Positions 34,338 through 60,666 of a stretch of DNA of 64,000 nt are shown in pieces. Position 1 is the first letter of the stretch, and every line of letters starts with the position of its first letter. Source of the stretch: Powellomyces hirtus (taxonomy: Eukaryota; Chytridiomycota; Chytridiomycetes; Spizellomycetales; Powellomycetaceae); assembly GCA_025526995.1 (NCBI GenBank), contig JAHLKG010000002.1:930001-994000 (forward strand). Reading direction: 5' to 3'. The notes below the pieces were generated by a model. That model saw only the letters and a list, made by a program, of their open reading frames with translations, did not search any database and had not been told where the DNA came from. Made by a program: the position numbers and the translations under genes.

Positions 34338-34361
34338 CTCCCCCGACTTTGGAGACCAAAC

Positions 34362-34802
34362 ATGCCACAAAACGGTCGAGCTCCGAAGTGTCCCGTTTGT
34401 CTTTTTCGAGATGCCGAATTCTGTGGGGACTGCGGGCACCTGCTGTGCTTTCGGTGTTTGAAGTACATTTGGGTGACACCTGACAACGCCGCACGCAGAT
34501 GTGTTATCTGCAGGTGAGGAAGGAGCCCCGTTGTGCTGGTTTCAGGGTACTGATATCTTGCATTGCACAGAAAAGAGTGGATTAACCTCTTTGAAGGGGA
34601 AGTAACAAGAAGGCGGTGTGACAGGTGTTACGAGAGAAAGGACTGTCGGACGCCGCACGCCTGTGGAGAAAGAAACCCCTGTTTTCTGTGTGAGAGCTGT
34701 TCACGGGGTCTGGTGCATCGAAGTGGAGAGATACGTTGCCCGAAATGCAACAAGTCGGACCGTCGATTGAGATGGTGGTTGCGGCGGGTGTATTTCAACT
34801 AG
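34362..34802 (+). CDS. Antisense RING-type Cys/His gene inside A2 (one intron)
   Basis: This is read against the element. Exon 1 is 34362-34513, the intron 34514-34570 (57 nt, GTGAGG...TACTGAT...CACAG) and exon 2 34571-34802. Splicing keeps the frame and gives a 127-residue protein. Residues C10, C13, C24, H26, C29, C32, C47 and C50 fit a RING-HC finger (CX2CX10CXHX2CX2CX14CX2C; core GHLLCFRC, CVIC). A second Cys/His cluster follows (C67, C70, C76, C82, C88, C91, C94, H100, C107, C110; ending CPKC). RING proteins are usually ubiquitin ligases; that function here is inference. It starts 24 nt from the LTR and ends 18 nt before the pol stop, tail to tail. It could be a captured host gene or an element accessory gene. 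Confidence 0.75.
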
Positions 34803-34820
34803 ACTTATAACGGGTGTATA

Positions 34821-37530
34821 TCAATGAGATTTGGCGTAATCTGATTTCGTTCGGAGTCCAGTTCGGTGTCGCAGATCATCAAGTAATGGGCGAGGTAGCG
34901 GTTTCGTCAGGGCGTCAGCCAGCATGAGCTTGGACTCAATGTACTGTAGGTGAATGCGCTCGTTACCGACGAGGTCTCACAGGAAGTGATAACGGACATC
35001 AATGTGTTTGGTTCGTTGGTGATGCGTCGGATTGGCAGCAAGCGTGATAGCGGCCTGATTGTCCTCATAGATGAGAACTGCTGTCTGCTCCGTTGCTGAC
35101 AGTTCGGATAGGAGACCCTGGATCCAGAGAGCTTCCTTTGCACATTCCGCGAGTGCAATGTATTCTGCTTCTGCTGTGGATAGCGCCGTTGATTTTTGAC
35201 GTTGAGATTTCCATGAAATGGCAGCTCCGTTGAGCATGAATACATAGCCGGAGGTTGAGCGACGCGTGTCCGTACAGCGTGCGTAGTCGGCATCTGAATA
35301 TCCGACAATATCTCCCCCATCTTTGAAGACAAGAGAGAGATCACTGGTTGTGTTTGTGTACGCGCAAACTTTCTTTGCGGCCGTCATGTGTACGGCCGTT
35401 GGTGCTGCCAGAAACTGAGATAAGTGGGAGACTGAGTAGGCCAGGTCAGGGCGAGTCCCTAACATCAGATACATTAGTGTTCCAATGATCGACTGATATT
35501 CCTTGATTCCTGATGCATCGAGGACGTCGGCTCCATCGTGCGCATTTAGATGTGAGGTCGGGTCCATCGGGATGTGATGCGGCCGCATGCCGTTAAGGTT
35601 AAACTTGTCGATCATGTCTTTGATGTACTTCTGTTGGCCGATGGTAATGCATCGCTCTGACCGGTCGTGCGTAATCTGAAGACCGAGAAGGAAAGAGATC
35701 TCCCCCATGTCCTCCATCTTGAAGCATTCGGCAAGCGCGGATTTGAGAGCGAGCAGGTCATCGAGGTCTGATGCGAAAATCGTGAGGTCATCCACGTTGA
35801 CGGCAACAATCAGGATCTTTGTGTTGTCAGTCCGCTTAATGTAGAGCGCGGTGTCGAGTTCTGATACTGAGAACCCGAGCTGTTGAAGAAAGGAGTCGAG
35901 AACCTTGTTCCATAGGCGCGGCGATTGTTTAAGGCCGTAAAGGGAACGGCGTAGTTTGACGACGTCGTCAGCGACGCCGGCTGGGAGCCGCATCCAGATT
36001 TCTACGTCGAGATCTCCGTTGAGAAATGCGGTGATGACATCCATCTGATGGACGTGAAGGTGGAGCTTAGCGGCAAGCGCGAGTAGCGCCCGCAAGGTGT
36101 TAAACTTGACGACGGGCGCATATGTTTTGTTGAAGTCAATGCCTTCACGCTGCGTGAAGCCTCGGGCGACGAGGCGGGCTTTGAACTTCTTGATGGAACC
36201 ATCGGCATTGCGTTTGACTTTGAAGACCCATTTAGAATCAACAAGGTGAGTGCCAGACGGTGTTTGCGTGGTGTCCGTGTCCCACGTCTTGTTAGTGCGG
36301 TGAGATGAGAGTTCAGCGTCGATCGCTTGTTTCCACTCTTTCGCGTACGGTGAGTTGATTGCCGCCTGGTAAGTGGCGGGCTCGTCAATGTCAGTGCTGC
36401 ATGCGGCATGCAGTTTGGCAATTGCGGGTGTGCCGTCATCTTCGATTCCGGTGAATCGCGTCGGGGCCTCTGAATCCTTGACGTTGTCGAGGGGTTCCCA
36501 TGTTGGTTCGTCGTAGCCAAGCCACTTGACCAGGAATTCCTCTCCCCCTTCACCGTTGCGAGAGAGTAAGATGCGCTCAACCACATATTCGGGAGTGGTG
36601 TCGCTCTGAGCGACAGGGCTGACGTAATCAGCCTTGTTAATTGTGACGTCTCGTGCGTCGATGATCGAATCCGTCGATGCATCATAAAAGCGATAGTTGC
36701 CTTGTTTTGTGGGGTGATATCCCACTAGTCGGAACGGTCCGACAGCGCGAGCTCCGAGCTTGCGGTGTGTGCGACGGCGCACAGGTTGATGCATATAGGC
36801 CACGCTCCAGATGGTGCGGAGGTTTGATACATCGGCAGGGGTCCCAAACCAACGTTGGTATGGGGTCTCTCCGTTGAGAGACGTTGATGGCGTCCGTTGA
36901 CGCAGGTAGTTGACGGCCATAGCGAGTTCTCCCCAAAGTTTGAAAGGAGCGCGGCTGTCATGAAGAATCGCTCGGACCTGGTCCATGAGCATACGGTTGA
37001 ACCGTTCAGCAATGCCATTTTGCTGAGAGGAGTACGGGTGAGTAGGGTTTAACGTGATCCCATCGGCGAGCAGCTCAGCCTGTAGGGGATAGTATTCACC
37101 GCCGTTATCGCAGCGCAGCTCCTTGATCTTGGAGTCGAGATGGCGTTCAGCGTACGCGCAATAGTTTTGCCAATAATCGTTGGTTTGATCTTTGGTCTTG
37201 AGGAGGTAGATGACGGAGTACCGTGTGTATTCGTCAATGAACGTGAGGATGTAGCGGGCGCCAGAGAGGGAGAGAAGATTGGCGCCCATGTCAAGAATGT
37301 CCGAGTGTATGCGATCAAGTGGTTTGGTTGCAGGTCGAGAGTTTTGCCCATTGAAGGGCAGCCGAGTGGATTTACCGAGGGAGCAGCCGGAGCACAGCGC
37401 GTGTTCCGGTTCGACGTTGTTTGGCAGATTGAGAGAATAGATCAGATTCGCAGCTTGAAGCGCTCGTTGTCCAATGTGCCCAAAGCGTTGATGCCATAGT
37501 TTATAGACATTGCGGTCCTTTGTTTTGCAG
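34821..37530 (-). pseudogene. A2 pol: integrase, chromodomain, RT, RNase H
   Basis: This is open from the integrase zinc region (LWHQRFGH, ALCSGCSLGK; frame open above 37442) to TGA at 34974-34976, where a CGA codon is expected. It then stays open to TGA at 34821 (MLADALTKPL). Integrase motifs are IHSDILDMG, CDNGGEYY and NGIAERFN. A chromodomain lies near 36470-36595 (EYVVERILLSR, EEFLVKWLGY, PTWEPLDNV), with the aromatic cage positions Y, W and Y kept. RT has DVITAFLNGD and NVDDLTIFA (YVDD changed to NVDD). RNase H has GYSDADYA, STAEAEYIAL and YEDNQAAITLA. One nonsense codon and the frame difference from gag-protease are the visible lesions. Confidence 0.88.
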
Positions 37531-39115
37531 CTTTGGTCGCAAAAGCAGCGGCGGTGGTTTCAACATAACCATCGATAAATGGCAGGTTTCCGTTGTGGCG
37601 GAGCGGTAGGATAACGCGGCCGTTCTTTAAGATGGAGGAACCGTTAGTTGAGAACGTGATTTCGTAACCGTCCCGGTTCAGTGGCGATGTGGAAACCAAG
37701 TTGCGGCTCGCTTCAGGTACGTAGAGCACGTCGACCCAGACAATGGCTTCGTCCGTGTCGTTATTGCTGATGGTGAGTGTGCCTGCTTCGCGAGCAGTAA
37801 GGTTTTCGCCGTTTGCGACGCCGATTTGGACTGCCGGGATGGGTCGCAAGTCAGTAAGGAGAATAGCGTCCTTGATAATGTGGTGCGTTGCGCAAGAGTC
37901 AAGGGCGATTGAATGCGAGGACCTGTGGTTAGTTGCCAAAACGAGGTTTGCTTCGGTAGCGGGTTCTTGCTGATGTTGTTTAAGGAGCTCGCGCGTGTCC
38001 TTCATTTTCGGGCAGTCCTTCATCCAATGACCGGTTTGTTCGCAGAAGAGACAGGGAGATCCTGGAACTGAGCGGCGGCGTTGTTTTTTCCACGATTTTC
38101 GGGTCGCGTGTTCATTGGTGTTGGCATCCGAATTGCCATGCATCACATGGGCTTCAACGTGAGACTCGGTTTTGGGCACACGAGCGCCCCGTTCTGAGGT
38201 AAGCTGTTCCTGTCGGATTGCGGCTTCCTGCATGGCGTCCAGATCCAAGAGATCCTTTGAGATGATGGCCGAGTAGATAGGACGCTTGAGTCCCTTGAGA
38301 TAGCGATGCTCGATTTCTCCTTTGTTCATGTCGGGGATCTGCATGACGAGTTTGTTGAATGCATTGTTGTATGCAATGACCGACGTGGTCTGTGAAAGAT
38401 CATCCAGTTTATCACGAATCATCGAGCTGAACGCTGGTGGTGTGAATCTCAGGCGTAGCGTTGTTTTGAGATGGTTCCATGTTCGAGGGGCGGTCCCCTG
38501 GCTTTCCTGGGTCCTCCACCAGATGTGAGCGGTAGATGTGAGTTTGCTTACCGCCATTTTTGCTTCGAGAAGTGGCGGAAGGTATGCAACCTCGAAAAAA
38601 TTGTCCAGTTTTGCAATGAATTCGAGAAGTAATTGCGGACTACTCATATCGCCATCGAAGTTGGGAACTTGTTTAAGGAGCTCCTTTGCGACGGAATTCA
38701 TTGAGGACGACGTGGGAGAAGAATTCTCCGATGAGCGAGAGTGTCGGCGGTCCTCCGGGAAGACATGAGGGTTTGCAGCGGCGGCCGTCTGCATTTGCAT
38801 TTGTGCGAAGGTAGAGATCATCTTCTCCATCATCTCTCGTTGGGATTCAGCCGCAAGGTGCTGAGACTCCCTTTGTGACTCGGCGGCGAGTCGCTGCGAT
38901 TCCAGCAGCATGCGTTCCTGCATTTCGGCGATAATGCGTTGGGATTCCAACAGCGCCTTCTCCAAATACTTCTTGGTGACGATCTCGTTGTCAGGTCGAG
39001 CGGCTCGACTCTTGTCGTCCTCACTGTGAGGACCCTCATCTGCAGAATCCTGCGTCGGCGCAGGGGCAGTGTTTGTTCCGGACCTGGTCCGAATGGGGCT
39101 ACGGGACAATGGCAT
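37442..39115 (-). CDS. A2 gag-protease
   Basis: An open frame of 557 codons starting MPLSRSPIRTRSG. An N-terminal Glu/Gln-rich coiled-coil segment has repeats of the type LLESQRLAAESQRESQ (about residues 50-100). The capsid region (SVIAYNNAFNKLVMQI, IEHRYLKGLKRPIYS) follows, then the zinc knuckle CLFCEQTGHWMKDC, then a protease-like segment with ALDSCATHH where DSG is usual. The frame ends 37442 in sequence that in the -1 frame encodes the GAG-pre-integrase motif, so pol is reached only by a -1 shift or after an old one-base loss in an A-run near 37530. A1 has the same A-run length. Confidence 0.85.
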   Translation of the reverse strand: MPLSRSPIRTRSGTNTAPAPTQDSADEGPHSEDDKSRAARPDNEIVTKKYLEKALLESQRIIAEMQERMLLESQRLAAESQRESQHLAAESQREMMEKMISTFAQMQMQTAAAANPHVFPEDRRHSRSSENSSPTSSSMNSVAKELLKQVPNFDGDMSSPQLLLEFIAKLDNFFEVAYLPPLLEAKMAVSKLTSTAHIWWRTQESQGTAPRTWNHLKTTLRLRFTPPAFSSMIRDKLDDLSQTTSVIAYNNAFNKLVMQIPDMNKGEIEHRYLKGLKRPIYSAIISKDLLDLDAMQEAAIRQEQLTSERGARVPKTESHVEAHVMHGNSDANTNEHATRKSWKKQRRRSVPGSPCLFCEQTGHWMKDCPKMKDTRELLKQHQQEPATEANLVLATNHRSSHSIALDSCATHHIIKDAILLTDLRPIPAVQIGVANGENLTAREAGTLTISNNDTDEAIVWVDVLYVPEASRNLVSTSPLNRDGYEITFSTNGSSILKNGRVILPLRHNGNLPFIDGYVETTAAAFATKAAKQRTAMSINYGINALGTLDNERFKLRI

Positions 39116-39181
39116 GATTGAGTATTGAACAACGTGAAGAAGGATGCAGGATGCTTGTCGTTTTAAGCGTTGAGCGGGCTG

Positions 39182-39196
39182 ACAGGGCTCATAACC
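39182..39196 (-). promoter_or_regulatory. A2 primer-binding site
   Basis: GGTTATGAGCCCTG (plus one non-matching base) directly inside the 5' LTR. It is the same initiator-tRNA anticodon-arm site as in B, C, E and G. Confidence 0.83.
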
Positions 39197-39453
39197 TGTT
39201 GTGCGTAGGTCCGGTTAAGGTGTAGTGCAACAGAGGAAAGCTAGCTCGACACTCTCAATGACAATGGGATGATTGTGTTATTGTTAAGTGTAAACGATGG
39301 GTGAGGGAGATCTACACTACGAAGAAGAAAGGTGGCTGTGCAAGCTATCTAAGCATACGCGGTCAGATGAAGCACCATTGCGCAGCGGGGGTCACGTGGA
39401 GTCTTGGAGCGCTGTCGATTTGACAGGTTTATCTCAAAAGTCCAATCTCAACA
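39197..39453 (-). repeat. A2 5' LTR
   Basis: A 257-bp LTR nearly identical to 34081-34337. Right flank CACTC is the target duplication. Confidence 0.94.
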
Positions 39454-39690
39454 CACTCCACAAGCTGTTGGCTTTCAGCATGGCCTGCATCTTGAACTTC
39501 CAGAGGTGGAAGTTTTTGCCAGTGAACTTGTTGATGGTGAGGCGGCCAGTATCATGGTCAGAGGACATGATGAGTTCGTTGAGGTGGTGGGAGGTGGAGA
39601 GAAGATGGGAATAATAGTAAAGGGAATGGGTGGTTGTGGTTGAGGTTGATGTTGATTGATCAATGAGTTGCAGATGCAGGGCTCATAACC
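39454..39690 (-). pseudogene. C (right copy) gag start, leader and primer-binding site
   Basis: This continues the C gag broken at 34080, with the start MSSDHDTGRL at 39568. The leader and primer-binding site (39677-39690, GGTTATGAGCCCTG on the minus strand) run up to the LTR. By eye the sequence is identical to the left copy. Confidence 0.85.
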
Positions 39691-44072: not shown

Positions 44073-44077
44073 GCAAG

Positions 44078-46628: not shown

Positions 46629-46903
46629 TGTAATAATACTAGGTCCGTTGCCAGAGTCTAGTCTTCTATTCGGGAATTCCCTATGTCTAGTTCTACTGTA
46701 AGATCTCTAAGTCCTGAATACGCCCTTGTCGGAGTATTCCTACTTTTCTTCTGGACCGCAGGGCGGTCCCGGTCACGTGATGGCCATCCGTGGCCATCCC
46801 TAAGGTCTAGTACCCTTCGGGATGCTGACGCTAGCATCCATCTTGCGCGGGGTCCTTCCCGATGCGTGTCTAGGCTTAGGTTGGCGAGCCACGCCTCATT
46901 ACA
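46629..46903 (-). repeat. F1 3' LTR
   Basis: A 275-bp LTR containing a CACGTG box (46774) and tandem GGCCATCC. The polypurine tract of the element abuts it at 46904. Confidence 0.94.
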
Positions 46904-47318
46904 CCCCCCTTAGATTCGCGACTATCTGTTAGGCTCGAATCTCTTCAGCGAGGCGAAGCTTGCCTAAGCCGGGCGGCGGCGGGTTAACGGATGCTGACGT
47001 GGTTGTGGGAAGATGAGGCTGGGGAGGCGGCCCTGGTGCGGGTCGCGTCGCGGTAGTCTCCGGCGGGTAGTCTCCGCCCTTCGTGGTGCGCGAAGTCATC
47101 AGAAAGTCTATTTCTCTCTTCGCAGGGGCCCTAGATGAATCACGAGTAGCTTCCTCCATGCAGATTTCGATAAGTAACATCTGCTGCGCTCCGTAGGGGA
47201 TGAAACACTAACACCTGAATTTCCGAGCGTTCCCAGGCAGATCGAGCCTTTAAAAAGGTACTGCCCGTTGAATCTCCCCCTCTCGCTCTTCTTTTCTTTG
47301 TAGCTCGACAAACTCACA

Positions 47319-47355
<37 letters not shown>

Positions 47356-47414
47356 ATGGCTGACACCCCCAACAACTCTCCTCCCCCCCCCCCCCCCCCG
47401 ACACCACCACCACC
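46904..47414. other. F1 3' non-coding stretch, upstream of the antisense gene
   Basis: This is shared with F2 (63628-64000) and therefore a fixed part of the family. It is GC-rich without convincing coding content: an 83-codon minus-strand frame at 46929-47180 recurs in F2 with several replacements and lacks any known motif. Towards the antisense gene it holds an (AC)n microsatellite (47320-47355), an ATG at 47356, a run of 17 C (47383-47399) and CAC repeats. The C-run puts the ATG at 47356 out of frame with the ATG at 47415, so the true start may depend on slippage in that run. Confidence 0.6.
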
Positions 47415-48124: not shown

Positions 48125-48340
48125 TTAGTTCTCCCCCCCCCTCTTTCTTGTATATACTTTCGATTGTTGTCTGTTGCTCCCTTGGGGCCTGGCCTCCGGG
48201 CCGTAATCAAATTCAGTACCAAAATCTCATCGCTGTACTTGCCTTCTCATCGCTGTGCTCCTTTGAGCCTTGTAGCATTTCGTATGCGTCCGCTGTGTCC
48301 AATGTCACTCGGCTTCTTCCCGGCTATGGTGCTCATGGTA
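48125..48340. other. F1 non-coding stretch between antisense gene and hairpin array
   Basis: About 215 bp, likely the 3' untranslated region and terminator of the antisense gene. It holds pyrimidine-rich tracts. I see no further feature. Confidence 0.4.
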
Positions 48341-49185
48341 GATGCCCTGCATCACACTTCCCCGTTGGGAAGACCGCCCAGCGGTTCCCCGGCCATCGTC
48401 CAACGATGCCGGTATCTCACCTAGTGAGGTCTACTGCCTCGCAGTTTTCGGCTCATCGCCCAGCGATCCCGGCATCTCGCCCAGCGAGGTATGCTGCCCA
48501 GCAGCCTTCGGCCATCGTCCAACGATGCCGGCATCTCACCTCGTGAGGTCTACTGCCTCGCAGTCTTCGGCTCATCGCCCAGCGATCCCGGCATCTCGCC
48601 CAGCGAGGTATGCCGCCCAGCGACCTTCGGCCCATCGTCAAACAATGCCGGTATCTTGGCCGAAGCCCTTCTCTTCCCCTTCGCGTGGGTATGTACTGCG
48701 GCCATGGTCCCCGCGGGTCTCGAGGTACGCTGCCATGCAAATCTGGTGCCGGTCACCTTGCATCGGCAAGCCGGTCGATGCCCAGCATCACCCTTCTCAC
48801 CCAGTGAGGTATGCCGCCCAGCGGCCTTCGGCCCATCGTCAAACGATGCCGGTATCTTGGCCGAAGCCCTTCTCTTCCCCTTCGCGTAGGTATGTACCAC
48901 GGCCATGGTCCCCGCGGGTCTCGAGGTACGCTGCCATGCAAATCTGGTGCCGGTCACCTTGCATCGGCAAGCCGTCGGCTCATCGCCCAGCGATCCCGGC
49001 ATCTCACCCAGTGAGGTATGCTGCCCAGCAGCCTTCGGCCATCGTCCAACGATGCCGGCATCTCGCCCAGCGAGGTATGCTGCCCAGCAGCCTTCGGCCA
49101 TCGTCCAACGATGCCGGCATCTCGCCCAGCGAGGTATGCTGCCCAGCAGCCTTCGGCCATCGTCCAACGATGCCGGAATCTCGCA
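48341..49185. repeat. Tandem array of triloop hairpins (about 59-bp unit)
   Basis: About 845 bp built from a unit of roughly 59 bp in which nearly every segment is a small dyad: ATCGT-CCA-ACGAT, the palindrome GATGCCGGCATC, CTCGC-CCA-GCGAG and GCTGC-CCA-GCAGC. Variant units change both sides of a stem together (ATCGC/GCGAT, CTCAC/GTGAG, ACTGC/GCAGT, GCCGC/GCGGC). A longer block with the TTGGCCGAAGCCC and CTGCCATGCAAATC segments interrupts the array twice (about 48653-48776 and 48856-48973). It lies in the 3' region of F1 between the antisense gene and the pol stop. Confidence 0.9.
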
Positions 49186-49245
49186 CTGTAATGTCCTCTA
49201 CCTCAAGTAGCATCTCTCTTGTTAATTTACGGTACAGCTCGCAAT

Positions 49246-51074
49246 CTAGGTTCTCTTACGTCGCCTGGCTGCTAGCCTTTGGCCGCGGTCCTCTCCGGGG
49301 TGCTCCCGGAGCCATTCTTCCAGTGCGGTCGTTCCCTTCACGTGTGCATACGGCTCCCACGTGTTCTGGGTGTTGTCGTAACCTGTCCACTTGACTAAGA
49401 ACTGCTCGGTGTTCCTGTGCCATCTGGCATTTAGGATCTTGTCCACTTGGTAGGTCTCCTGACCGACTTCATCCTTCTCGGGCTCAGGCGGGGCGGTGAC
49501 CTGTCTGTACGGGGTACCGTCCGGGTCGTGGTAACGTCTCAGAATGCTGACATGAAAGACTGGGTGCAACCCGGTGAACTCCTTGGGTAGTTCGAGCTCG
49601 TAGGTGTCAGGATGCGGGCCCTTGCCGCGTACTGTGAATGGCCCAATCCATTGCTCAGCCAGCTTTTTGTTCCTTGTGGTGACGCTGGCAATCGCGATAC
49701 CCTCGCGATGAAGTAAGACCTTGTCACCCTCTCGGTATGCTTCCGCGTGCTTCTTGCGGTTGTAGTACTTTGCCTGCTGGTCCTGTGCGTCTCGGAGCCG
49801 TTGCTGCACGATGCGACTCACGTCGGCGAATTCCTTAATCCGTCTCTCCACGGTGGTTCGTGCCGATTGCCTTATCATCTCCCCGGGGTTAGGTGCTACC
49901 CATTGGTTCGGTACACGGGGAACGCGGCCTAGGTCAATCTCGAAAGGGGATAGTCCCGTCGATGTCTGCGGCGTTCGGTTGTAGTTGTACTCGAGGGTGG
50001 GGAGTAAACTCTTCCAGTTGGAGCCGGCATAGTCGAGATAGGGGCCCATGATTCCCTTGATCGTCTTGATGGCGTTCTCCGCCTTGCCGTCGGTCTGTTG
50101 GTGTCGTGCCGACGAGAGTTCCTGCTTGACGTCGAGTGCCCGCATCAGGTACCGCCAGAATTCTGATAGCCACTTGGGGTCCCGATCGCTCACGATGGTG
50201 TGGGGTAACCCCGTGTGGCGGAATGCCTGTTTCAGAAAGAGTTGAGCCGTCTCCTGAGCTGTAGCGCATGTATTAGTAGGTAGAAGTATCACGCGGCATG
50301 AAAGATAGTCAACGATGAGGAGTACGGCGTCCGCCGTCTTGGTCAGTCTCTTGCCGGTGTGGTGCGAAGGGTTCTTCGTCACGTCGGGCTCTACCCGAGG
50401 TTCCCCACCCTTAGAGCCTGACGTGGGGAAGAATATATCCATGCCGATTTGTTGCCAACGAGCGTCGGGGATCGGTAAGCTGCGGAGGAAGCCGATCGGC
50501 GCGGCGCACTTGTGACGTTGGCATGTAGGGCAAGTGCGGACATATTGGTACACATCACGCTTCATGTGAGGCCAATAGTACGACTCCAGAAGTTTGGCGA
50601 GCGTCCGTTGTACACCGGAGTGGCCGCCGTTCGCGAGGGAGTCGTGATGGGTCTGAAGAAGTGGCCCCCGTAGACTGTCGGGGACGTACCGACAGTCGTG
50701 GTACATCAAGAATCGGTCCGGAGGGGAGTCCACTGCCCGGAATCGGCGTGCATGGCCGGACAGGTTCTCCTGTGGGCCGTCAAGGGTTAGTAGGATGTTT
50801 TGGCCAAAATCATCGGATGCGAGCGCTCGGGTCCAGTCCGCATCGGTCGGCATGTGCGTCGTTGCGGTTATCTCCGGTTGCACAATGGCGGTGACCACAT
50901 CGATCTTGGCCTGGCAGGTCGCACACTTGGGGGCGTAAGTCGGGTCGCGACTTAGGAAGTCGGCGATCGAGTTCCATGTGCCGGGGAGGTATTCCACTGA
51001 AAAATCGAACTGTTGGAGGAACTCGACCCAGCCCGCTTGGCGATGTGACAGGTGGGGTTGTTCCTGAAGGTAGA
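49246..51074 (-). pseudogene. F1 pol, second part: integrase and chromodomain
   Basis: This is open 50997-49246 (MEYLPGTWNSIADFLSRDP). The N-terminal H2C2 zinc region of integrase (THHDSLANGGHSG ... CPTCQRHKC) is followed by the catalytic core (GMDIFFPT, IVSDRDPKW, TDGKAENAIKTIKG), the GPF-like C-terminal region (AEQWIGPFTVRGKG, GLHPVFHVSILRRY) and a chromodomain near 49330-49470 (TYQVDKILNARWH, EQFLVKWTGY, NTWEPYAHV). It is separated from the RT frame by one missing base near 51090, where the expected RAFVDHKSL motif is read out of frame. Otherwise it looks undamaged. Confidence 0.9.
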
Positions 51075-53174
51075 TCAGGGATTTGTGGTCGACAAAAGCA
51101 CGGAAGGGCGGCCGATGAGGTAATGGCGGTTGGCGCGTATAGATTTGACCAGTCCCAGTAGTTCTTGTTCATGTACGGGGTATCGGGTCTCGGCGGGTTG
51201 CATCTTGCGGGAGTAGTATGTCACCGGGCGAAGTTGTGGAAGGTTAGCCAAGCCTGATTTGGTGGTAGGTAGTGGATGAGGGTATGGGAAATCCCCTGCG
51301 GCCGGCTGTGCCAGCCATCCACCATAGGCGTAGCCCGATGCGTCGGTAAACAAGTAGGTGTCGAGCGCCGGGTCGAAATACGCTAGGGTAGGTGCCGAAG
51401 AGCATAATTCCTTTAAGCGACTGAACGCCTTGTCCTCCTCGTCGCCCCATTGCCATGGGCGATTGCCGGATTGTAGGTTCGTTAACAGTAGGGCGATCTG
51501 TGCATACTCCGGGATGTATTCTTTGACGTAGTTGACAAGGCCCATAAAACTAAGGAGTTCCAGGGAGTTGGTCGGGCGAGGTCGTTCCCGGACCGCAGTC
51601 ACCTTGGAGGAGGCGATACTCAGGCCATCCTTGCCGACTCGGTGGCCGCAGAACTCGACTTCGTCAACCGCCCATTGACATTTGCTGGGTTTGACGTGGA
51701 GGCGATGTTCCGCCAAGGTCTTGAGCACCTCGTCGACGTGCTGAATGTGCGAACTCATGTCGGTGCTGAATATGAGAATATCGTCGAGGTATGAGATCAC
51801 GTAGGCGTCGTACTTGTCGCCCAAGAGTTTGTTGGTTAGTCGCTGGAATGTAGCAGGTGCATTAGTTAAGCCGAAAGGTAGAACATTGTATTCGAAATGT
51901 CCAAAACGTGTTCGGAACGCTGTTTTCTCCCTATCTTCCAGTCGGATCATGATGCAGTGGTACGCGTCGCGGATGTCGATCGCGGTGAATACCCGCATGT
52001 TGACAAGCCTGTCGCGCAGCTCCGAGAGGTTCGGAAGTGGCGTGGCATCCTTGTGAGTCATCTTGTTCAGTGCCCGGTAGTCAATGCAGCAGCGTAGGCC
52101 GCCGTCCTTCTTTGGGGCAAATAGGACGGGCGCGCCCCACGGACTGCGAGAGTGTGAGATCCATCCCTTGTCCATTAAACGCTGCATCTGCTGGCCAAGC
52201 TTGTCCAGTTCGTCAGGGCTCAAATGCCGGAGTGGCTGCATCACGGGCTTCGAGCCGGGTTTGAGCCGAATAGTGAAATTGTCCTCGCCTCGGTCCGGAG
52301 GCATGCCTGACTGCTCGGTGAATAGCGTCGTGACATATTTCTCTAGGGTCAGTCGGAGTGGATGGTCGGCTGCCAGCGCCTCTAGCGGGTCCTCTTGATC
52401 TACCGCCTTGGCTTCAGTGTTGGTGTGGCGTCGTTCCTCCAAGATTGCCCTTTTCTTGGCGTCGGCCGTCCGTACGAATTGAGCCTCTGCGACTGGAATC
52501 GCATCTACGATGTGTATCTCGAAAACTCCAGTGATCTCGCCCTTCTTCATCAAGCGTTTCCATTGCTTGGCTGTGTAGATTCCCTCTGCATTGAGTGCTG
52601 GCTTCGCCGGCTGGAATCTGCGAGGCCGTACCTCTCGTGGGGAGAGTAGGCGGGCGGCGCACGCGGACGGTGCTTCCCAATGGCGGTTGGTCGATTTGGC
52701 TCGAAGGCTAAGGGTCTGGCCGTCGTGGTAGAACGTCATCGTTGGAAAGCCCCCTTGGTCGAAGAGCCCTCGGACGTCCAGCCCCAATATGAATGGCAAG
52801 CCCAGTATGGCATCGACCCTGATCGGCACGACCACGAACGGTACGGTATCCTCCCGGTAAGTGATCTTCTCCTCGGTGAACACCGAGAGGTCCCCACAGG
52901 TCATCTTTGTTGCCCCGTAGTTTCCCGCTCTGTCGCCCCACCGGACCTCCAGCGGAGTTGGAGAGGTGTAGGTCCAGAGGCCGTGTTTGGCGGCCCAAGT
53001 GTTGCTGATGATCAGCGTGTTACATCCGGTATCGATTAGGATGCGGGCAAAGTGCCCTTGTACCTTCCCGTGGACCACAAATGTCTTCCTGTGAATGCGG
53101 GGTCCCGGTCTGTCCGTGGGGATCTTGTCTTGCATCCGGGGTTGGGGTACTGAGACAGTGCAAGCGTTCAGCAC
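51075..53174 (-). pseudogene. F1 pol, first part: protease, RT, RNase H
   Basis: This is open 53174-51075. Protease has LIDTGCNTLIIS, RT has the Ty3-type YLDDILIF palm (DAYVISYLDDILIFS) with FTAIDIRDAYH and the CIDYRALNK fingers, and RNase H begins TYLFTDASGYAYGG. It overlaps the end of gag by seven bases in the -1 frame, so pol is probably expressed by -1 frameshifting or a similar recoding step. It ends at a premature stop caused by the one-base loss that displaces the rest of pol. Confidence 0.9.
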
Positions 53175-54394
53175 CCGGGGCGAAAATCCGAGCTGTTGAC
53201 TGAGCCCCCATCGCTGACCGCCTCGTCTCCGGACCCTTCGGTGATCTCTACAGGGGCGGCGAACGTCCTATGCTCACCGGCTTTGCCTTTACTTGCTGGG
53301 CACCCACGGGCGTAGTGCCCCTTGCCCCCGCAATTGAAGCATTCGTTGCGCTCCCGGCGTTCATTGTAGATGGTGTGCTCACGGTGTGAAGTCCCTTGGT
53401 AGTTGTCCATACCGCGTGTGGGACGGCCTGAGCCGTAGGGTGTGTGGCGCCCCCGTTCTCGTGTTTGATAGTTCCCTCGGTGGACCTGGGCCGGCTGGAC
53501 TGCGGCGTACTGACGTCTTCTCCCGTTGGGGGTCACCCGCACGAGGTCGTCCGCATAGCCTCGAATCTTGTAGCATAACAGGGCTTCGTTCTGTAGCTCG
53601 GTGATCGGAATCTCGGCGCCGTTGTTCCTCATGATCGCGGTATAGCAGTGGTCTCGAATGCGCTGGCCAACGTGGTTGGTCGAGAATCCGGTCAAGAAGT
53701 AGTTGCGCTCTTGCTGTGGGGTAAGTCGCTCCTTATCGTCGAGCGTTGCGATCTGGGCCCAAAGGGTATTGAACTTGGCGATGTACTCCGATATGCTATT
53801 AGTGAAAACCAGACGCTTCATCTTTGCCTCCGCGGTGTTTCGTAAGTTGGCAGGATAGAAGCGGGTGCGGAGTGTCCTCGTGAACTCTTCCAATGTCGTG
53901 GGCAGGTTGCCGGCATCTCTGAGCATTTGCCACCACTCGTCGGCGGTCTCCTTGAGGTACCCCGAGATGTGGTCGACATCCCGGTGGTCCGTCCTGAAGT
54001 CGGTTGCCTCAAGGTAGCGCGTGTGGACCTTCAAGAACTCATCGACCTTCGACACCATTTCTTCACTGTTCCCTTTTCCGTCGAAGTGTGTCAGCTGCTT
54101 GCGAAGGTTCTCACGGCGTTCCTTCTCGGCTTGCATTCGTGCGCGGTTTTCTTCCGCCAGGATGATGTCGACGTGCGGTGTTGCAACCGCTGGTTGGACT
54201 GGGGTTGGAATCCTTGAGAGAAGGGCTTCGAAGCGGGCCTCTCCCATTGCGATCTGTTCCTGCAGTAGGCGTTGGGTCTCCGCCAATTGTGCAGCCAACA
54301 TTGCAACGGGGTTGCCGATCGGTGTGTCAACTTCGGGTTCTCCTACTGCCGGGCTTTCCCCTGCCATTGGGCTGTTCCTGGTGCTACGTGCCAT
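53168..54394 (-). CDS. F1 gag
   Basis: 408 codons from MARSTRNSPMAG. A coiled-coil-like N-terminus (AQLAETQRLLQEQIAMGEA) leads into a Ty3-type capsid (FLKVHTRYLEATDF, HISGYLKETADEWWQ, YFLTGFSTNHVGQRI) and a CCHC zinc knuckle CFNCGGKGHYARGC near residue 360. Gag forms the particle and packages RNA. No lesion is visible. Confidence 0.92.
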   Translation of the reverse strand: MARSTRNSPMAGESPAVGEPEVDTPIGNPVAMLAAQLAETQRLLQEQIAMGEARFEALLSRIPTPVQPAVATPHVDIILAEENRARMQAEKERRENLRKQLTHFDGKGNSEEMVSKVDEFLKVHTRYLEATDFRTDHRDVDHISGYLKETADEWWQMLRDAGNLPTTLEEFTRTLRTRFYPANLRNTAEAKMKRLVFTNSISEYIAKFNTLWAQIATLDDKERLTPQQERNYFLTGFSTNHVGQRIRDHCYTAIMRNNGAEIPITELQNEALLCYKIRGYADDLVRVTPNGRRRQYAAVQPAQVHRGNYQTRERGRHTPYGSGRPTRGMDNYQGTSHREHTIYNERRERNECFNCGGKGHYARGCPASKGKAGEHRTFAAPVEITEGSGDEAVSDGGSVNSSDFRPGC

Positions 54395-54406
54395 TGTTGT
54401 CGTCTA

Positions 54407-54422: not shown

Positions 54423-54697
54423 TGTAATAATACTAGGTCCGTTGCCAGAGTCTAGTCTTCTACTCGGGAATTCCCTATGTCTAGTTCTACTGTTAGATCT
54501 CTAAGTCCTGGATACGCCCTCGTCGGAGTATTCCTACTTTTCTTCTGGACCGCGGGGCGGTCCCGGTCACGTGATGGCCATCCGTGGCCATCCCTAAGGT
54601 CTAGTACCCTTCGGGCTGCTGACGCTAGCATCCATCTCGCGCGGGGTCCTTCCCGACGCGTGTCTAGGCTTAGGTTGGCGAGCCAAGCCTCATTACA
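54423..54697 (-). repeat. F1 5' LTR
   Basis: A 275-bp LTR, TGTAATAATACTAGG to CATTACA. Right flank TCTCA matches the left flank of the 3' LTR. Confidence 0.94.
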
Positions 54698-54702
54698 TCT
54701 CA

Positions 54703-54843
54703 CCTCTGAAGAAGAACGCAACTTCTACAAGAGGGCCCGTGATCCCCATTACCTCCTGTCAATCACGGCTGGCAATACCAATTGTCAGCTTAGTCTGGCC
54801 GAACTTCAAGCCACTGCCTTACGATTGGAGGCTTTAAACAAGC
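54703..54843 (+). pseudogene. E gag, second part
   Basis: A 141-bp continuation of the E gag between F1 and G (TSEEERNFYKRARDP, LQATALRLEALNK). It is in frame with both neighbouring E pieces once the insertions are removed. Confidence 0.85.
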
Positions 54844-55083
54844 TGTTAGCACGTACAGACTCTGTCATCGAGTCACAACTGCGCCATCGCAGGGCGCATT
54901 ACGCGATCACGTGAACCCACGTGATCAACTCCGATATAAGTAGTTTTCCTTCCATACTTAATATATCGGTGGGACTTTTCTCTTTTTCTCCAATAAGAGC
55001 GGGATTAAGTTACTTCGTTGTTCTGCTCAGTCAACTACCCTAAAGCTTTCTCAATCATCTACTCAGATACTCTCAGACCAACA
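54844..55083 (+). repeat. G 5' LTR
   Basis: A 240-bp LTR, TGTTAGCACG to GACCAACA. Promoter-like parts are two CACGTG boxes exactly 10 bp apart (54908 and 54918), forming the dyad GATCACGTG-AACC-CACGTGATC, then TATAAG at 54935. Confidence 0.94.
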
Positions 55084-55098: not shown

Positions 55099-58000
55099 AA
55101 TGGTAGGCAACGAAACGAGCCCCCGGTACACTCGTAGTATGTTAAGACGCCTAGCGGGTCGACGGACCCCAGGGTCCAATATGCTACAACGAGCCGTAGA
55201 TCGTGCCGCAAAGAAAAGCGCACGAGTGCCTGGTGAATGGACATCACCAAGCAATGGAGGGAACTCTGCCGATAACGAGACACTGGCAGAGCCAACGCCC
55301 TTGAGTGTCGATGCCAACAAGGGCGACGACGCATTGGAAGGGCGTACCCGAAACATCGACCGACGCGATGGCAAGGTCGATACCCGTCCCCTATCAAGCA
55401 GTACGGATGATCACAGAACGATCAGCTACAGTACTCCAGCGGCATTCCCAAGTGGGGAATCAGCGAACACCGTGCATGTACGCCCGCGTGGGGCGGACAT
55501 GGATAGGATAGATAGGCTTGAGAATTCTCTAGCCCAACTAACGGAAATGCTCCAAATGAAATGGCGCATGGATCAGGATGTGAACATCCCGATCAACCCT
55601 CAGGTACGTACGGCGCAACGGCGCGTACGCACACCATCACCCACTCGCAACGACGGGTTCGCTGCACCGTGGACAGAGTACAATCAGGAGATTGGAGCTC
55701 AACAGGAATACCAACGTTCTCCAATCGAACGCCGCCCTACGTCACCGACATCGAGCATACACAGCGTGACGACCAAAATCATCGACAGTCGAGGTGCGAA
55801 GGCTTTCGTGGATGGAACGCTGAAAGATATTGGGTCCTAAAATGGAGAATCCAATATGGTAAAACTTCGAACGTTCATCGACAAGATTGAGACAGTTGTG
55901 AAGTACGAAATGGTTCCGTCCGAGTTTCTCGTAGATTTTGTGGCTACGAAACTCACAGGATGGGCATACACTTGGTGGCAGTCGCTCTCCCCAAGTAAAA
56001 GGAACAAAATTCCGACGTGGCATGACTTTGAAGACGTTGATTCAGGAAGAACCAACACCGGTCTTAGGTCCGCCCTTCTGGCGCGCTTCGCGCCACGAAA
56101 CCACACTAGAGATTCGCTGCAGAAACTACGGGAATTGCGTCCCAAAGGCCGCATGGATGAGTACATCACTCAGTTCAACATGCTGGCATTTTCTCTGCCG
56201 AAGACACCGGATTACGTCCTTCAGGATTACTTCATTAACGCGCTAACACCAGACCTTGCGGCCTTGGTTCAGGCTAATGAAGAAAACATAACTGATTTGA
56301 GCAGTTTACAGGCCGCCACATCCAGGATCGCCGCCAACATGGCTAAGAAACCTAGCGGGACCGCAACGGATACGCGACCAGGTGCCGCATACACTGACGC
56401 CTCTAAGAAACCAAAGGGTGGCAAGAACCACAGGGAGAAGTCAACGGACGGCAAGAAGGACAAGGAATCCACTCCATCAAACAAAGGCCAACCACACAAG
56501 TCGGGTTGTTGGGCCTGTGGAGACCCTAAACACCGGACACAGGAGTGTCAAGTGTTAAAGAAGTTCAAATCCGAGATGGAGAAGAACAAGACGAAGGAGT
56601 CGTCTGATGGTGCTGTTAGCACAAATGCTGTGGAAGCATTACATGTCTGGGTCCGCCAGGATCAACCGTATGAAGCCCTCATTGACTCTGGCGCGACGGA
56701 CCACATGACACCCCACAAAGCGACCTTGGATCACTCAACCGTGTACAGTGATGTCAGAGCTGTTATGCTGGCTGACAAAACATCACTACCCTCTACAGTT
56801 CGAGGTACGGTACGAGTTGAAGTTAACGGCTATCCAAATCCGCTCGAGCTGGGCGGAGTCCTACATGTGCCAGGATTACGACGAGATCTCGTATCGGTAG
56901 CGAAATGTAACGATCAAGGCGTTGACGTGCTCTTCAAATCAAATGGAGACGTCATTTTCACGCAAGACGGCAAAGATATCGCCAAAGGCGTACGCCGCAA
57001 CAACGCGTATTACCTGCAAGGTACGCTACTGTCTGAAAGTCTGTCGTCAGATTCAGAAGTATGCACGGTCAAAGTCTCTCCTACACTCGCCCATGCTTGT
57101 CTTGGACACGTTGGCAAACACGTCCTGGAGAAGATGGCATCGGTTACGGACGGTTGGTCCGTAGTGGGGGATCTAAGCGACTTCAAAGATTGTGAAGCCT
57201 GCGTGTTAGGAAAAGCCGCTCGTCTTCCATTCTCCCCTGGTAACGTTGAAACCAGGGAGATCTGTGAGCTGATTCATTCAGACGTACAAGGACCATTTCG
57301 CATCCCTGGTTACGAAGGATCACGCTATTCCTTGGAGTTCATTGAACACGCATCCAGATACGTGACTGTTTTCCCTATTCCTTCAAAGGATTCAGCAGTC
57401 ATACTCGACAAGTTTCTCATCTACAAGGCTTGGATTGAGAAACAGACTGATCGACAAATCAAGATCCTACGGACGGATCGAGGCACCGAATACTTTGGCG
57501 AGGTTCTAGAGTACCTATTGGAAAATGGTATCACTCATCAAAAGTCCGCGGCCTATTCGAGTCAGCAAAACGGGATTGCCGAACGATGGCATCTCACGGC
57601 GCTGGACAGGGTCCGCGCCACCTTCGCGGATACAAAACTACCTCGAAGATTCTGGCCTGCTTTACTGGTAGCGGCTGGATACATCTATTCCCTTACGTAC
57701 AACTGCATCAACAAGAAGACGCCGCATGAAATACTGTTTGGCCGGCGTCCTGATGTCGCCCATCTTAGGCGTATCGGTTGCGTGGTGTATTCCGTTCTAA
57801 CAAGCAAAGGACGCGATAAAATGGGAAATCGAGCAAAGAAGGCTTACTTGGTAGGCTATGCTCAACCCACAGGTACCAAGGGGTATCTGGTATGGGATCC
57901 TGTTACTGACAAGGTCAAAGTGTCACGAGACGTGATCTTCAAAGAAGACTTGGGACTCGAATCCAAATATCAGCAGGATCCAGCACATCTTGACCTTCTA

Positions 58001-59976
58001 GATGAAGAGAGTCAGGAGGATGACGTCGAATACACCGTGGAGGCGATTATCGACAAGCGCCGCAGTAAGGTGCACACAAAAGAGTACTTGGTTAAGTGGG
58101 AGGGATATCAAGAACCTACGTGGGAGTCCCGACTTTCACTACTCGATACTACAGCACTGGATGACTGGGAAAATCGAGTAGCCGCGTACGATGTCGGCAC
58201 ACGACGAAATGACCCCATCGCTGCATACGCCGCCCGCGCGCGGACTCAAGCAACAATCAACAAAGACGCCATGACATGGAAGCAAGCGATGAAAACCCCT
58301 CAGAAGGAGGAATTTCTCAAGGCTGCACGCATTGAGTACCAATCCCTGGTCGACAACGGTACATGGGAGCTCACCAAGCGTCCACGTAACAAGCGCGTGA
58401 TCAAGACAACATGGGTCTTTCGAACAAAGGTCAATCCCGATGGCACCTTTAACAAGTTCAAAGCCAGAGCAGTAGCTCAAGGCTTCTCTCAACAACCCGG
58501 TCGCGACTTTGGTGATACATATTCACCTACGCTACCATTCACAGCGCTACGCCTCTTCTTGGCGTATTGTGTCCAGCACGGGCTGGACATCCACAGTATG
58601 GATGCTGTCACCGCCTTCCTTAACAGCGATATTGATAAGGATATCTATATCGAGCAGTTTGAGGGATTCGAAGATCCGGATCACCCCAAAGGCGATTGGG
58701 TCCTGAAGCTACTGAAAGCTCTCTACGGCCTGAAGCAATCACCTCTTCTTTGGTATGAGACCTTGAAGACTGCACTGTTGAAGCTCGGCTACGAAGCGGT
58801 TTCTGTATGCCCGTGTATCTTTTTCAAGTACGCGACAGACGACCGTACACCTCCGTCGAACGACAATTTGGTCCTTATTCTCGTCTTCGTCGACGACCTG
58901 CTGATTGCAGCGAAGGATTCGGAGATTCTGGCGAACAGCAAAATGGAGTTACATTCGAAGTGCAAGTTTACGGAACAAGGTCGCGTCACCAGTCACCTTG
59001 GTCTTGTCTACAAATATGATTTCGACTCTCCTGTTCGTACCCTCGAAATCTCAAATGTCAAGTACAATCGACGACGCTCTTGCACAATTCGGCATGAGCG
59101 ACTGCCATCCTGTCTCCACCCCGTACGCCGTGTCAGCGCGTAACCAACAACCGGAGGATTCGACCCCATTCACGAATCTGAAAATGTATCAGGAAGCAGT
59201 GGGGGTCCTCACTTGGGCCTCCATCACATGGCGATGGGATATCGCCACTGCAGTCGGTTATGTTGCGCGACGCGTCGCCGCACCTACCAACTCCGACTGG
59301 AACAATGTTAAGCGCATTTTCCGCTATTTGAAGGGTACCCGCGAATATGCCCTCAAGTTTACATCCGAACGAAATGATCCGCGTGGCCTACGCGTATTCA
59401 CGGATGCGGATTATGCAGGAGAACTCACCGACCGGACGTCCACTACAGGTATTTTGGCCCTCTACAATGGGTTTCCTGTTCTGTGGAAAAGCAGCAAGCA
59501 GAAGTGCACCGTCCAAAGTACGACCGAAGCGGAGTATATAGCTGCCAGTACCGGTCACAACGAAGCCAAATGGCTACGCCAACTCTTGGCGGAAGTTCTG
59601 GGACCTCAACCGGATTACATATCTCGACCGGTCCCTCTCCATGTCGATAATCAGAGCGCCGGGGCCTTGATTCAGTCTAAGGCTATCAACCAACGCACCA
59701 AACACATCGACGTTCGGTACCACGCTATACGCGATTCGTTCGCGAAGCAAATTATCGAAATCATCGACACCAATACGGACGATCAACTGGCGGACATCTT
59801 TACAAAGCCTTTTCCCACTGTGAAACATAAGGACACTGTCCTGAGGATTACGAATGGGACTCATATATTTGATGAGAGAATACGCAATGAGGGCGCGCCT
59901 ACGGAAGCACACCGAGCCCAAGTGTTACTCGCTGAATGTCAGGAGAATTACTCACAACACTGGCTTACCTTGGCAA
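55088..59976 (+). pseudogene. G gag-pol with chromodomain; one stop and one frameshift
   Basis: Gag runs from the primer-site ATG to TAA at 55838-55840, then continues in the same frame (NGESNMVKLRTFIDKI) to 59143. Domains: zinc knuckle CWACGDPKHRTQEC; protease ALIDSGATDHMT; integrase LIHSDVQGP, RTDRGTEYF, NGIAERWH; chromodomain about 58027-58185 (EYTVEAIIDKR, EYLVKWEGY, PTWESRL); RT with DAVTAFLNSD and FVDDLLIAA (FVDD variant). A one-base loss near 59060 shifts the frame into the RNase H part (DDALAQFGMSDC, FTDADYAGEL, STTEAEYIAAS, HVDNQSAGAL, LADIFTKPF). The sense frame then stays open to 60620, but I regard that extension as the shadow of the antisense gene. Confidence 0.9.
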
Positions 59977-60666
59977 CTACACCGCAATTGCGGAACCCAA
60001 AGCAATGCCTCCCAAGGAGGATGGGCCTGCCCCTCCTCCATCCTCCTCATCGCTTGAGGGTGAGCGTCGGCTTGAAGAACCCGATGGTCCCTCCAACTCC
60101 TCAGCTGCCCTCTCCTCCTCCTCCTCTTCCTCATCATTATATGGAGCTTCACGCTCCAGGATGTCCCACATCCTCTTCACCTCCGCTGCAGACTTCTTGT
60201 CCGCAGTTCTCTTCTTCGCCTGGGCCGTATCCTTGCCCTTCCCAACCGCCAGCTTCCGGCTCCGCCGGTCCTCTAGTATGGACCTCAGTCCATCAAGCGT
60301 CCCGGTCGCCCGTGCGTGACCCAGAGGCGTACCAGACCTCGCCCGGTCTTTCACCCGGTCTTTCGCCTGCTCGATGTGATGTTCAAGGACCCCTTGACGG
60401 TCCTTGCGGTGGAACTGTCGGGCATGCGCCGCCAACATCGTTCGAATCTCCACTCGGGACAACCCCGCAGTGGGTGCGCCTCCCTGTGGCGCAGAGGGCA
60501 CCACTGACGACGGCACAGCAGGAGCTGTGGTCGTCGCCGGAGCAGTCACCGGCGGTCCTGTCTTTCTCGCCGTCTGCTTCGCTTTGCCCGACCCTGACAA
60601 CTACACCGGCACATAGTTAGAGCTTACGCCTCATTTGCGCGGATCTCATAGACGTACCCTAGCCAT
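59977..60666 (-). CDS. Antisense gene inside G (one intron), charged protein with acidic tail
   Basis: This is read against the element. A 9-nt first exon (60666-60658, ATG GCT AGG) joins through a 57-nt intron (60657-60601, GTACGT...CTAAC...GTAG) in phase 0 to exon 2 (60600-59977), giving about 210 residues. Without the intron the frame would start at a TTG just after a TAG. The protein has a basic N-terminus (KAKQTARKTG), a long charged, probably helical middle (QFHRKDRQGVLEHHIEQAK, KKRTADKKSAAEVKRMWDIL) and an acidic stretch (YNDEEEEEEER). No domain is recognised. It lies between RNase H and the polypurine tract, the same place and orientation as the A2 and F1 antisense genes, though unrelated in sequence. 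Confidence 0.65.

What the first reader, a model, noticed from the sequence alone, without database searches (positions are those of the whole stretch)
34362..60666. Three unrelated retrotransposons carry a spliced antisense gene at the same spot
Copia A2 (34362-34802), gypsy F1 (47415-48124) and Copia G (60666-59977) each have, between the end of pol and the 3' LTR, a gene on the opposite strand. In all three, plausible introns (57; 75, 75 and 55-59; 57 nt) with good donors, branch sites and acceptors join exons in frame. A spliceable gene on the opposite strand can survive retrotransposition, because its introns are not removed from the element's own transcript. Extra antisense ORFs after pol are known in some plant LTR elements; recurrence in both Copia and gypsy of one genome, with RING-type products in two, suggests repeated capture or an accessory system acting on host silencing, proteolysis or copy control. 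That role is inference.
Basis: partly seen in the sequence, partly recalled or inferred. Interest (0 to 1): 0.92.

Follow-up and report, generated by a model that had tools for sequence, protein, structure and literature searches.

The report
Spliced antisense genes in chytrid retrotransposons
Three different jumping-gene families in a chytrid fungus each carry an extra, intron-bearing gene on the opposite strand near one end, and natural selection has kept these genes working, so they probably help the elements spread; extra genes at this place were known before, but this intron-bearing, zinc-finger form looks new.

Summary
In a 29.3 Mb genome, probably Powellomyces (a chytrid), Copia A, gypsy F and Copia G each carry an antisense gene beside the 3' LTR in most copies fetched. 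In F, a subfamily 54% identical in protein keeps the same four exons without a gap while introns differ in length (59/74/62 vs 75/75/59 nt); dN/dS is about 0.3 at dS above 1. Variants shared between copies are poor in amino-acid changes (ratio to neutral: F 0.35, G 0.27, A 0.62-0.71); single-copy variants are near neutral in F and G. Control frames show no such signal. No spliced retrocopy was found.

A and F encode RING-like proteins, not detectably homologous; G a charged protein. Corrections: F probably starts at 47356, this F copy lost its third splice donor, and G's pol frame runs through its antisense gene. Expression, splicing and E3 activity are untested. Antisense genes at this place are known (plant Grande/Retand, Botrytis brtn, HTLV). 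Verdict: real; a new variant of a known kind.

The parts
34362..34513 (+). Copia A2 antisense gene, exon 1: RING (C-x2-C-x10-C-x-H-x2-C-x2-C-x14-C-x2-C)
34514..34570 (+). A2 antisense intron, 57 nt; GT..AG in 30 of 30 copies; 67 nt in relative L090
34571..34802 (+). A2 antisense gene, exon 2: second module with 8 Cys invariant in 6 chosen sequences, and conserved tail
34073..34343 (-). A2 3' LTR, about 19 nt from the antisense ATG
34977..37559 (-). A2 pol (integrase, chromodomain, RVT_2)
37442..39214 (-). A2 gag (PF03732, Pol_BBD)
39189..39459 (-). A2 5' LTR
47356..47480 (+). gypsy F1 antisense gene, exon 1; the ATG at 47356 is in frame in most other copies, here only the ATG at 47415
47481..47555 (+). 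F1 antisense intron 1, 75 nt (59 nt in L119 and L121)
47556..47708 (+). F1 antisense exon 2: first part of RING-like module
47709..47783 (+). F1 antisense intron 2, 75 nt (74-79 nt in other copies)
47784..47950 (+). F1 antisense exon 3: rest of RING-like module and further Cys
47951..48009 (+). F1 antisense intron 3, 59 nt; donor changed in this copy (GAAAGT)
48010..48124 (+). F1 antisense exon 4, with an 18-nt duplication seen only in this copy among the 30
46629..46928 (-). F1 3' LTR
48329..49216 (.). F1 tandem repeat array between antisense gene and pol
49246..53267 (-). F1 pol ORFs (RVT_1, RNase H, integrase zinc-binding, C-terminal chromodomain)
53168..54403 (-). F1 gag
54423..54722 (-). 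F1 5' LTR
60658..60666 (-). Copia G antisense gene, exon 1 (9 nt)
60601..60657 (-). G antisense intron, 57 nt (58 or 61 nt in three copies)
59977..60600 (-). G antisense gene, exon 2 (charged, partly low-complexity protein)
55841..60620 (+). G gag-pol (two frames, 55841-59143 and 58905-60620); the pol frame runs through the antisense gene
60781..61020 (+). G 3' LTR (5' LTR 54844-55083)
3035..7141 (-). Copia B gag-pol: comparison element, no chromodomain found; pol ends about 8 nt from the flanking LTR, so no room for an extra gene

Best explanation
Each family carries a true protein-coding accessory gene on the strand opposite to gag-pol. Shown: three conserved antisense genes beside the 3' LTR, intron models upheld by comparison, protein-level selection on the lineage that multiplies, and near-neutral change after insertion in F and G. 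Inferred: an antisense transcript starts in or beside the 3' LTR (in A the ATG is about 19 nt from the LTR, so the start probably lies in the LTR; F has a leader of about 430 nt), the introns are spliced out, and the protein acts for the element that encodes it. Introns persist because they are not removed from the sense genomic RNA. For A and F the likeliest activity is a RING E3 ubiquitin ligase acting on a host factor that limits the element (turnover or chromatin silencing), a role like that of retroviral accessory proteins. For G a nuclear or nucleic-acid-associated charged protein is a guess. My estimates: genes real and selected 0.95; spliced as modelled 0.9 for F and A, 0.8 for G; protein helps the element 0.6; RING acts as E3 0.5.
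For: F: exons 66/153/167/94-97 nt align without a gap between subfamilies 54% identical in protein while intron lengths differ by 16, 0-1 and 3 nt; dN/dS 0.24-0.36 at dS 1.15-1.60. Indels not a multiple of 3 in 30 F copies: 14 in 209 intron nt, 1 in 483 exon nt (several are inherited, so not independent). Shared variants: F N/S 29/36 vs null 45.3/19.7, G 16/35 vs 32.1/18.9, none of 500 shuffles as low; singletons 1.23 and 0.99. A: 0.71 (30 copies, P 0.04) and 0.62 (25 copies, P 0.02); L009 vs relative L090 Fisher 9e-14, intron at the same place but 67 nt. All 8 RING ligands invariant in the chosen sequences (6 of A, 5 of F). The A profile finds RNF4, COP1 and TRIM RINGs in the PDB. No intronless copy among 38 A loci and 40 scored F loci. 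Negative control: 0 of 6 frames of the F leader significant.
Against: No RNA evidence. Pfam RING matches are all below curated cut-offs. The best PDB match of A (8.7e-6) is a chain with two fused RINGs; single RINGs give 0.0036 at best; F's best is PCGF5 at 0.015. A is weakly constrained within the family: 12 of 30 copies broken, subsets of 19 and 11 copies give 0.51 (P 0.22, 11 variants) and 0.71 (P 0.07), and its singletons (0.55-0.78) are not clearly neutral; pol is lower (0.43). Relative L093 has lost several of the ligands and was not in the alignment. Pairwise dN/dS used chosen intact copies (A 7, F 7, G 8), which lowers it. The G intron hardly varies (0-5 differences in 57 nt), so it may have another function, and G's exon 1 is only 9 nt. 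In 18 distant G copies frame-breaking indels are commoner in exons (26) than in the intron (1). One opposite-strand frame sharing third positions also looks constrained (G 0.33, with 2 fixed stops; F 0.40). The shuffles do not model the tree.
Confidence: 0.6

Rival explanations
1. The antisense RNA, not the protein, is what matters: it pairs with the genomic RNA and limits copy number or feeds RNA interference.
For: Antisense transcripts of retroelements can do this (discussed in PMC7264820, passages). The very conserved G intron would fit RNA constraint.
Against: Constraint follows codons in the spliced frame: third positions vary most, Cys/His ligands are kept, dN/dS is about 0.3 in F. RNA pairing alone would not produce that.
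Confidence: 0.15
2. The protein restrains the element (self-limiting copy control, as Ty1 p22 does; recalled) rather than helping it.
For: Would also give selection on the protein at the level of lineages or host; in A 12 of 30 copies have a broken frame.
Against: Constraint on shared variants but not on singletons in F and G suggests that copies with an intact gene left more copies, which a plain self-inhibitor would not predict.
Confidence: 0.15
3. Host genes picked up as passengers or by nested insertion, with no use to the element.
For: A-type relatives L090 and L091 have no recognised pol within the 4.9 kb fetched and lie next to a dynein-light-chain-like ORF (recalled identification).
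Against: Same place in 29 of 30 A and 29 of 30 F copies, three lineages, and codon-level constraint during amplification.
Confidence: 0.04
4. For G only: the antisense gene arose by overprinting on a C-terminal extension of pol and was not captured.
For: In the window's register the pol frame is free of stops across the antisense gene in 20 of 21 close copies and 14 of 18 distant ones; only 0.6% of codon shuffles with the same protein are. The product is charged and partly low-complexity, with no Pfam hit above cut-off and no PDB match at E 0.1.
Against: The sense residues show no constraint (ratio 1.74); the openness may be inherited chance.
Confidence: 0.35

Closest known systems
Boty-like gypsy elements of Botrytis cinerea with antisense gene brtn (Zhao et al. 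2011, Virology; not read, cited in PMC7264820 and PMC8365987)
   Same: Fungal LTR element with a chromodomain (PMC4227169 passage) and an antisense gene between pol and 3' LTR (PMC7264820 section 5)
   Different: No RING or intron was mentioned in the passages I saw. Protein relation to A, F and G not tested
Plant antisense aORF-3R: Grande gene23, RIRE2, Retand TRP28 (PMC7264820: passages and section 5; PMC11963269: passages)
   Same: Same place and strand, in most copies, unknown function; about half of the Retand elements also have tandem arrays there, as F does
   Different: Retand codes for TRP28, not RING; the word 'intron' does not occur in either text, though PMC7264820 urges a search for antisense and spliced transcripts
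HTLV antisense genes such as HBZ (PMC7264820 and PMC11963269 passages; splicing and bZIP recalled)
   Same: Antisense gene with a promoter in the 3' LTR; HBZ is spliced (recalled)
   Different: A bZIP protein (recalled) of a retrovirus; no sequence relation claimed
RING E3 ligases such as RNF4, COP1, TRIM21
   Same: A's N-terminal module has the full C3HC4 spacing and aligns over it
   Different: Second 8-Cys module and tail have no convincing match; E3 activity unproven

Membership tests
Antisense additional ORF between pol and 3' LTR (aORF-3R) | ORF antisense to gag-pol | tested here: met
   A, F, G
Antisense additional ORF between pol and 3' LTR (aORF-3R), A and F | Located between end of pol and 3' LTR | tested here: met
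Antisense additional ORF between pol and 3' LTR (aORF-3R), G | Located between end of pol and 3' LTR | tested here: not met
   Beside the 3' LTR, but the pol frame has no stop before it and overlaps it
Antisense additional ORF between pol and 3' LTR (aORF-3R) | Present in most copies with conservation like gag-pol | tested here: inconclusive
   Conserved, A less than pol; but copies were found by the gene itself, so copies without it are not counted
Antisense additional ORF between pol and 3' LTR (aORF-3R) | Transcribed in antisense | not testable with these tools
   No RNA data
RING-type zinc finger (A) | Eight metal ligands with C3HC4 spacing, conserved | tested here: met
   All eight invariant in 6 chosen sequences; lost in part in L093
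RING-type zinc finger (A) | Profile match to known RINGs | tested here: inconclusive
   PDB: two-RING RNF4 chain 8.7e-6, single RINGs 0.0036 and weaker; Pfam below cut-off
RING-type zinc finger (F) | Eight metal ligands with C3HC4 spacing | tested here: inconclusive
   Eight conserved ligands, but last pair is C-x4-C; PDB best 0.015; Pfam below cut-off
RING E3 ubiquitin ligase | Ubiquitin transfer with an E2 | not testable with these tools
   Needs an assay
Spliceosomal intron | GT..AG ends, reading frame only when removed, length free to change | tested here: met
   Strong in F and A, weaker in G
Spliceosomal intron | Observed spliced RNA | not testable with these tools
   No RNA data; no spliced retrocopy found
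MELD virus 'oncoid' (name of public record P0003) | Gene of a virus genome, not of a retrotransposon | tested here: inconclusive
   Same gene sits in gypsy F with LTR and pol in place in 29 of 30 copies here; the record's own contig was not fetched

The most novel reading that the evidence does not exclude
One fungal genome has evolved the same solution at least three times: an antisense, spliceosomal accessory gene at the 3' end of an LTR retrotransposon, hidden from the element's own splicing. Two of the genes are independent RING ligases that disarm host control of the element, one of them exchanged between subfamilies by recombination, and the third was born by overprinting on pol.
Probability: 0.25. 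Interest if true: 0.82.

Novelty: new variant of a known kind. Interest (0 to 1): 0.62.

Why it matters
Antisense extra genes of LTR retrotransposons have stayed without known function. Here are three in one small fungal genome, with dozens to over a hundred matches each, protein-level selection and, in two, a recognisable zinc module. That makes the question 'what are these genes for' testable, and shows how introns can persist in an element that moves through RNA. It also warns annotators: one product is filed publicly as a virus 'oncoid'.

Tried and rejected
Chance ORFs: rejected by codon-level constraint and by the control region. Homology between the A and F RINGs: hhalign probability 1.9%, so no evidence. 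Relatives elsewhere: none for A (2 candidates, none scored), 2 proteins for G, 1 for F, all Powellomyces or unnamed (the search needs shared 5-residue words). IMG/VR gave none for F (which may leave out records of this genome); A and G were not searched there. Spliced retrocopies: none; one A match (C32:110484) runs 11 nt past the junction, but that locus is L093, which has the intron. The 571-aa + strand ORF of G as the coding frame there: not supported at residue level, but its openness is odd. Flanks of A relatives: 7 ORFs of L089-L091 gave no Pfam hit, so their carrier is unknown; L092 lies beside a Copia pol with about 1 kb between, so nested insertion cannot be excluded. Of 4 distant F loci fetched, L120 and L122 were degenerate and not used for dN/dS. 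Structure prediction of A exon 2 (ticket) had not finished; the G job was never accepted. In the first A analysis minus-strand loci were not turned and the result was discarded; the first F script failed part-way and was redone. The pol benchmark included five copies with partly non-homologous flanks (L019, L031, L033, L035, L036); without them is the one to use.
Full report
What was checked. The window is part of a 29.3 Mb assembly in 60 contigs. The host is probably Powellomyces or close kin (Chytridiomycota, Spizellomycetales), because the only database relatives with a name are Powellomyces records: one is the F gene read through its introns, with 127 of 129 residues outside them identical, and one is a DNA polymerase B fragment fused to G sequence. 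This identification is an inference.

The three genes. A2 (Copia, - strand) has on the + strand a two-exon gene 34362-34802 of 127 codons. F1 (gypsy, - strand) has on the + strand a four-exon gene ending at 48124. G (Copia, + strand) has on the - strand a two-exon gene 60666-59977 of 210 codons. Of 30 A copies fetched (40 of 43 candidates scored), all have the LTR 19-23 nt upstream and 29 have pol on the far side. Of 30 F copies (40 of 76 candidates scored), all have the LTR and 29 have pol; the missing one runs off its contig. For G, at least 16 of 40 LTR matches lie 115-118 nt from a G gene start (compared by eye). Copies were found through the gene, so elements that lost it altogether are not counted. 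In tblastn G gave 101 near full-length matches (129 candidates; some with internal stops), and F 253 exon matches from 150 scored of 236 candidates.

Are the introns real? In F, copies L119 and L121 (54% protein identity to L040) have exons of 66, 153, 167 and 94 nt that align codon by codon without a gap, while the introns measure 59/74-75/62 nt against 75/75/59. The frame can only be kept in both if the introns are removed. Within 30 F copies, indels that break the frame number 14 in 209 intron nt and 1 in 483 exon nt (Fisher 4e-7, but several indels are inherited, so this overstates). For A the numbers are 4 in 57 and 6 in 384, for 21 G sequences 2 in 57 and 2 in 633, and for 18 distant G copies 1 in 57 and 26 in 633, so the distant G copies do not show the pattern. 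In A the intron is GT..AG in 30 of 30 copies, 56-59 nt long, and 67 nt at the same codon in the relatives L090 and L091; the L090 product is 50% identical. In G the intron is 57 nt, but 58 in L075 and L088 and 61 in L103; it is otherwise very conserved and exon 1 has only 9 nt, so this model is the weakest. No intronless copy was found: among 38 A loci one match passes the junction, by 11 nt, and that locus (L093) has the intron; among 40 scored F loci (69 candidates) none passes it. That is what an antisense intron predicts, but it is not proof of splicing.

Are the proteins selected? I split variants into those found in one copy (mostly after insertion) and those shared by two or more (mostly from the lineage that multiplied), and compared amino-acid-changing to silent changes with 500 shuffles that keep the mutation spectrum and CpG context but not the tree. 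F: shared 0.35, single 1.23. G: shared 0.27, single 0.99. A: shared 0.71 (30 copies, P 0.04) or 0.62 (25 copies, P 0.02), single 0.70-0.78; pol of the same 25 copies gives 0.43 and 0.83. Smaller A subsets are not significant for shared variants (0.51, P 0.22; 0.71, P 0.07), and singletons of the close 19 copies give 0.55, so A does not show the clean contrast. The six frames of the untranslated F leader give 0.78-1.36 for shared variants, none significant. One opposite-strand frame that shares third positions also looks constrained in F (0.40) and G (0.33), as geometry predicts; in G it has two fixed stops. Pairwise dN/dS between chosen intact copies: F 0.24-0.36 between distant subfamilies and 0.12-0.59 between near ones (7 sequences); G 0.26-0.58 (8 sequences, 13 pairs shown; 7 of the 18 distant copies were open); A 0.30-0.79 among six copies, with dS saturated against L090 but amino acids kept (Fisher 9e-14 for L009). 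A pol for five pairs is 0.18-0.29. So A's gene is constrained, but less than pol.

What the products are. A: an N-terminal RING with all eight ligands invariant over 6 chosen sequences, then a module with eight invariant Cys and a conserved tail; the decayed relative L093 lacks several ligands. The profile finds RNF4, COP1 and many TRIM RINGs in the PDB: 8.7e-6 for a chain with two fused RINGs, 0.0036 and weaker for single ones; Pfam scores stay below cut-off. F: a RING-like module with eight conserved ligands, the last pair C-x4-C, and seven further invariant Cys over 5 chosen sequences; best PDB match PCGF5 at 0.015. A and F are not detectably homologous. G: charged, partly low-complexity; Pfam DUF6604 only at 0.011, below cut-off, with a provisional N-terminus; no PDB match.

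Origin. A has relatives down to about 50% identity. L090 and L091 share a duplicated block with no recognised pol in the stretch fetched, so they could be a parent host gene, an older element, or an escapee. In the A family, L034 and L037 differ from L009 by 13-15% in LTR and antisense gene but 5-6% in pol, which suggests that 3' ends are exchanged by recombination. In G the pol frame, counted in the window's register, is free of stops across the antisense gene in 20 of 21 close and 14 of 18 distant copies, and only 0.6% of codon shuffles are, which hints at overprinting; the sense residues themselves are not constrained.

Mechanism. The pattern 'selected while multiplying, near neutral after landing' in F and G suggests that the gene benefits the copy that carries it. 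The simplest scheme is an antisense transcript from the 3' LTR or its neighbourhood, spliced, giving an accessory protein; for A and F a RING ligase acting on a host factor. All of this beyond the selection is inference. All three elements have a chromodomain in pol; Copia B, where none was found, has no room for an antisense gene; Boty of Botrytis also has both. Four families in one window are too few to call that a rule.

Known ground. [quoted passage not shown] PMC11963269, PMC8365987, PMC4227169: passages). The word 'intron' does not occur in the two plant papers, nor 'antisense' in the 2011 survey of fungal LTR elements (PMC3248453, passages). The term 'oncoid' in the public record comes from a virus survey that defines it by short linear motifs alone (PMC11071296, passages; that it is the source of this record is inferred). 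Searches of the open library with retrotransposon, antisense, RING, additional ORF, Powellomyces, E3 ligase and intron terms (capped listings, titles and abstract starts only) showed no report of a spliced antisense RING gene in an LTR retrotransposon; subscription papers, including Zhao 2011, were not seen. Hence: a new variant of a known kind.

Noticed in passing
34977-37559 (A2), 55841-59143 (G), 61592-63064: Ty1/Copia pols with a chromodomain; in A and G it lies between the integrase/SH3 part and RT. PMC2774666 (2009, passages) knew a Copia chromodomain only from diatom CoDi-A elements.
   Followed up: partly
P0003 (relative of window 47356-47950): A public protein named 'oncoid' of 'Powellomyces chytrid fungus MELD virus 1' is the antisense gene of gypsy F read through its introns; it looks misfiled, but its contig was not seen.
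   Followed up: partly
P0002 (relative of G exon 2): A Powellomyces hirtus protein joins a DNA polymerase B domain (PF03175) to G antisense sequence, as if a G element had inserted into a Polinton-like gene.
   Followed up: no
58905-60620, + strand: G pol frame stays open through the whole antisense gene in most copies; possible overprinting.
   Followed up: yes
L090 and L091: Relative of the A RING gene head-to-head with an ORF resembling dynein light chain LC8 (recalled), in duplicated blocks (93-96%); L090 also has an ORF with a zinc-ribbon motif recalling Fanzor/TnpB (recalled; no Pfam hit).
   Followed up: partly
L034, L037 against L009: Mosaic A elements: LTR and antisense gene 13-15% apart, pol 5-6%, suggesting exchange of 3' ends.
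   Followed up: partly
48329-49216: Tandem array between the F antisense gene and pol; gene-to-pol gap varies from 856 to 1245 nt between copies.
   Followed up: no
2519-24966: Nest of many near-identical Copia B copies and LTRs inserted into each other.
   Followed up: no
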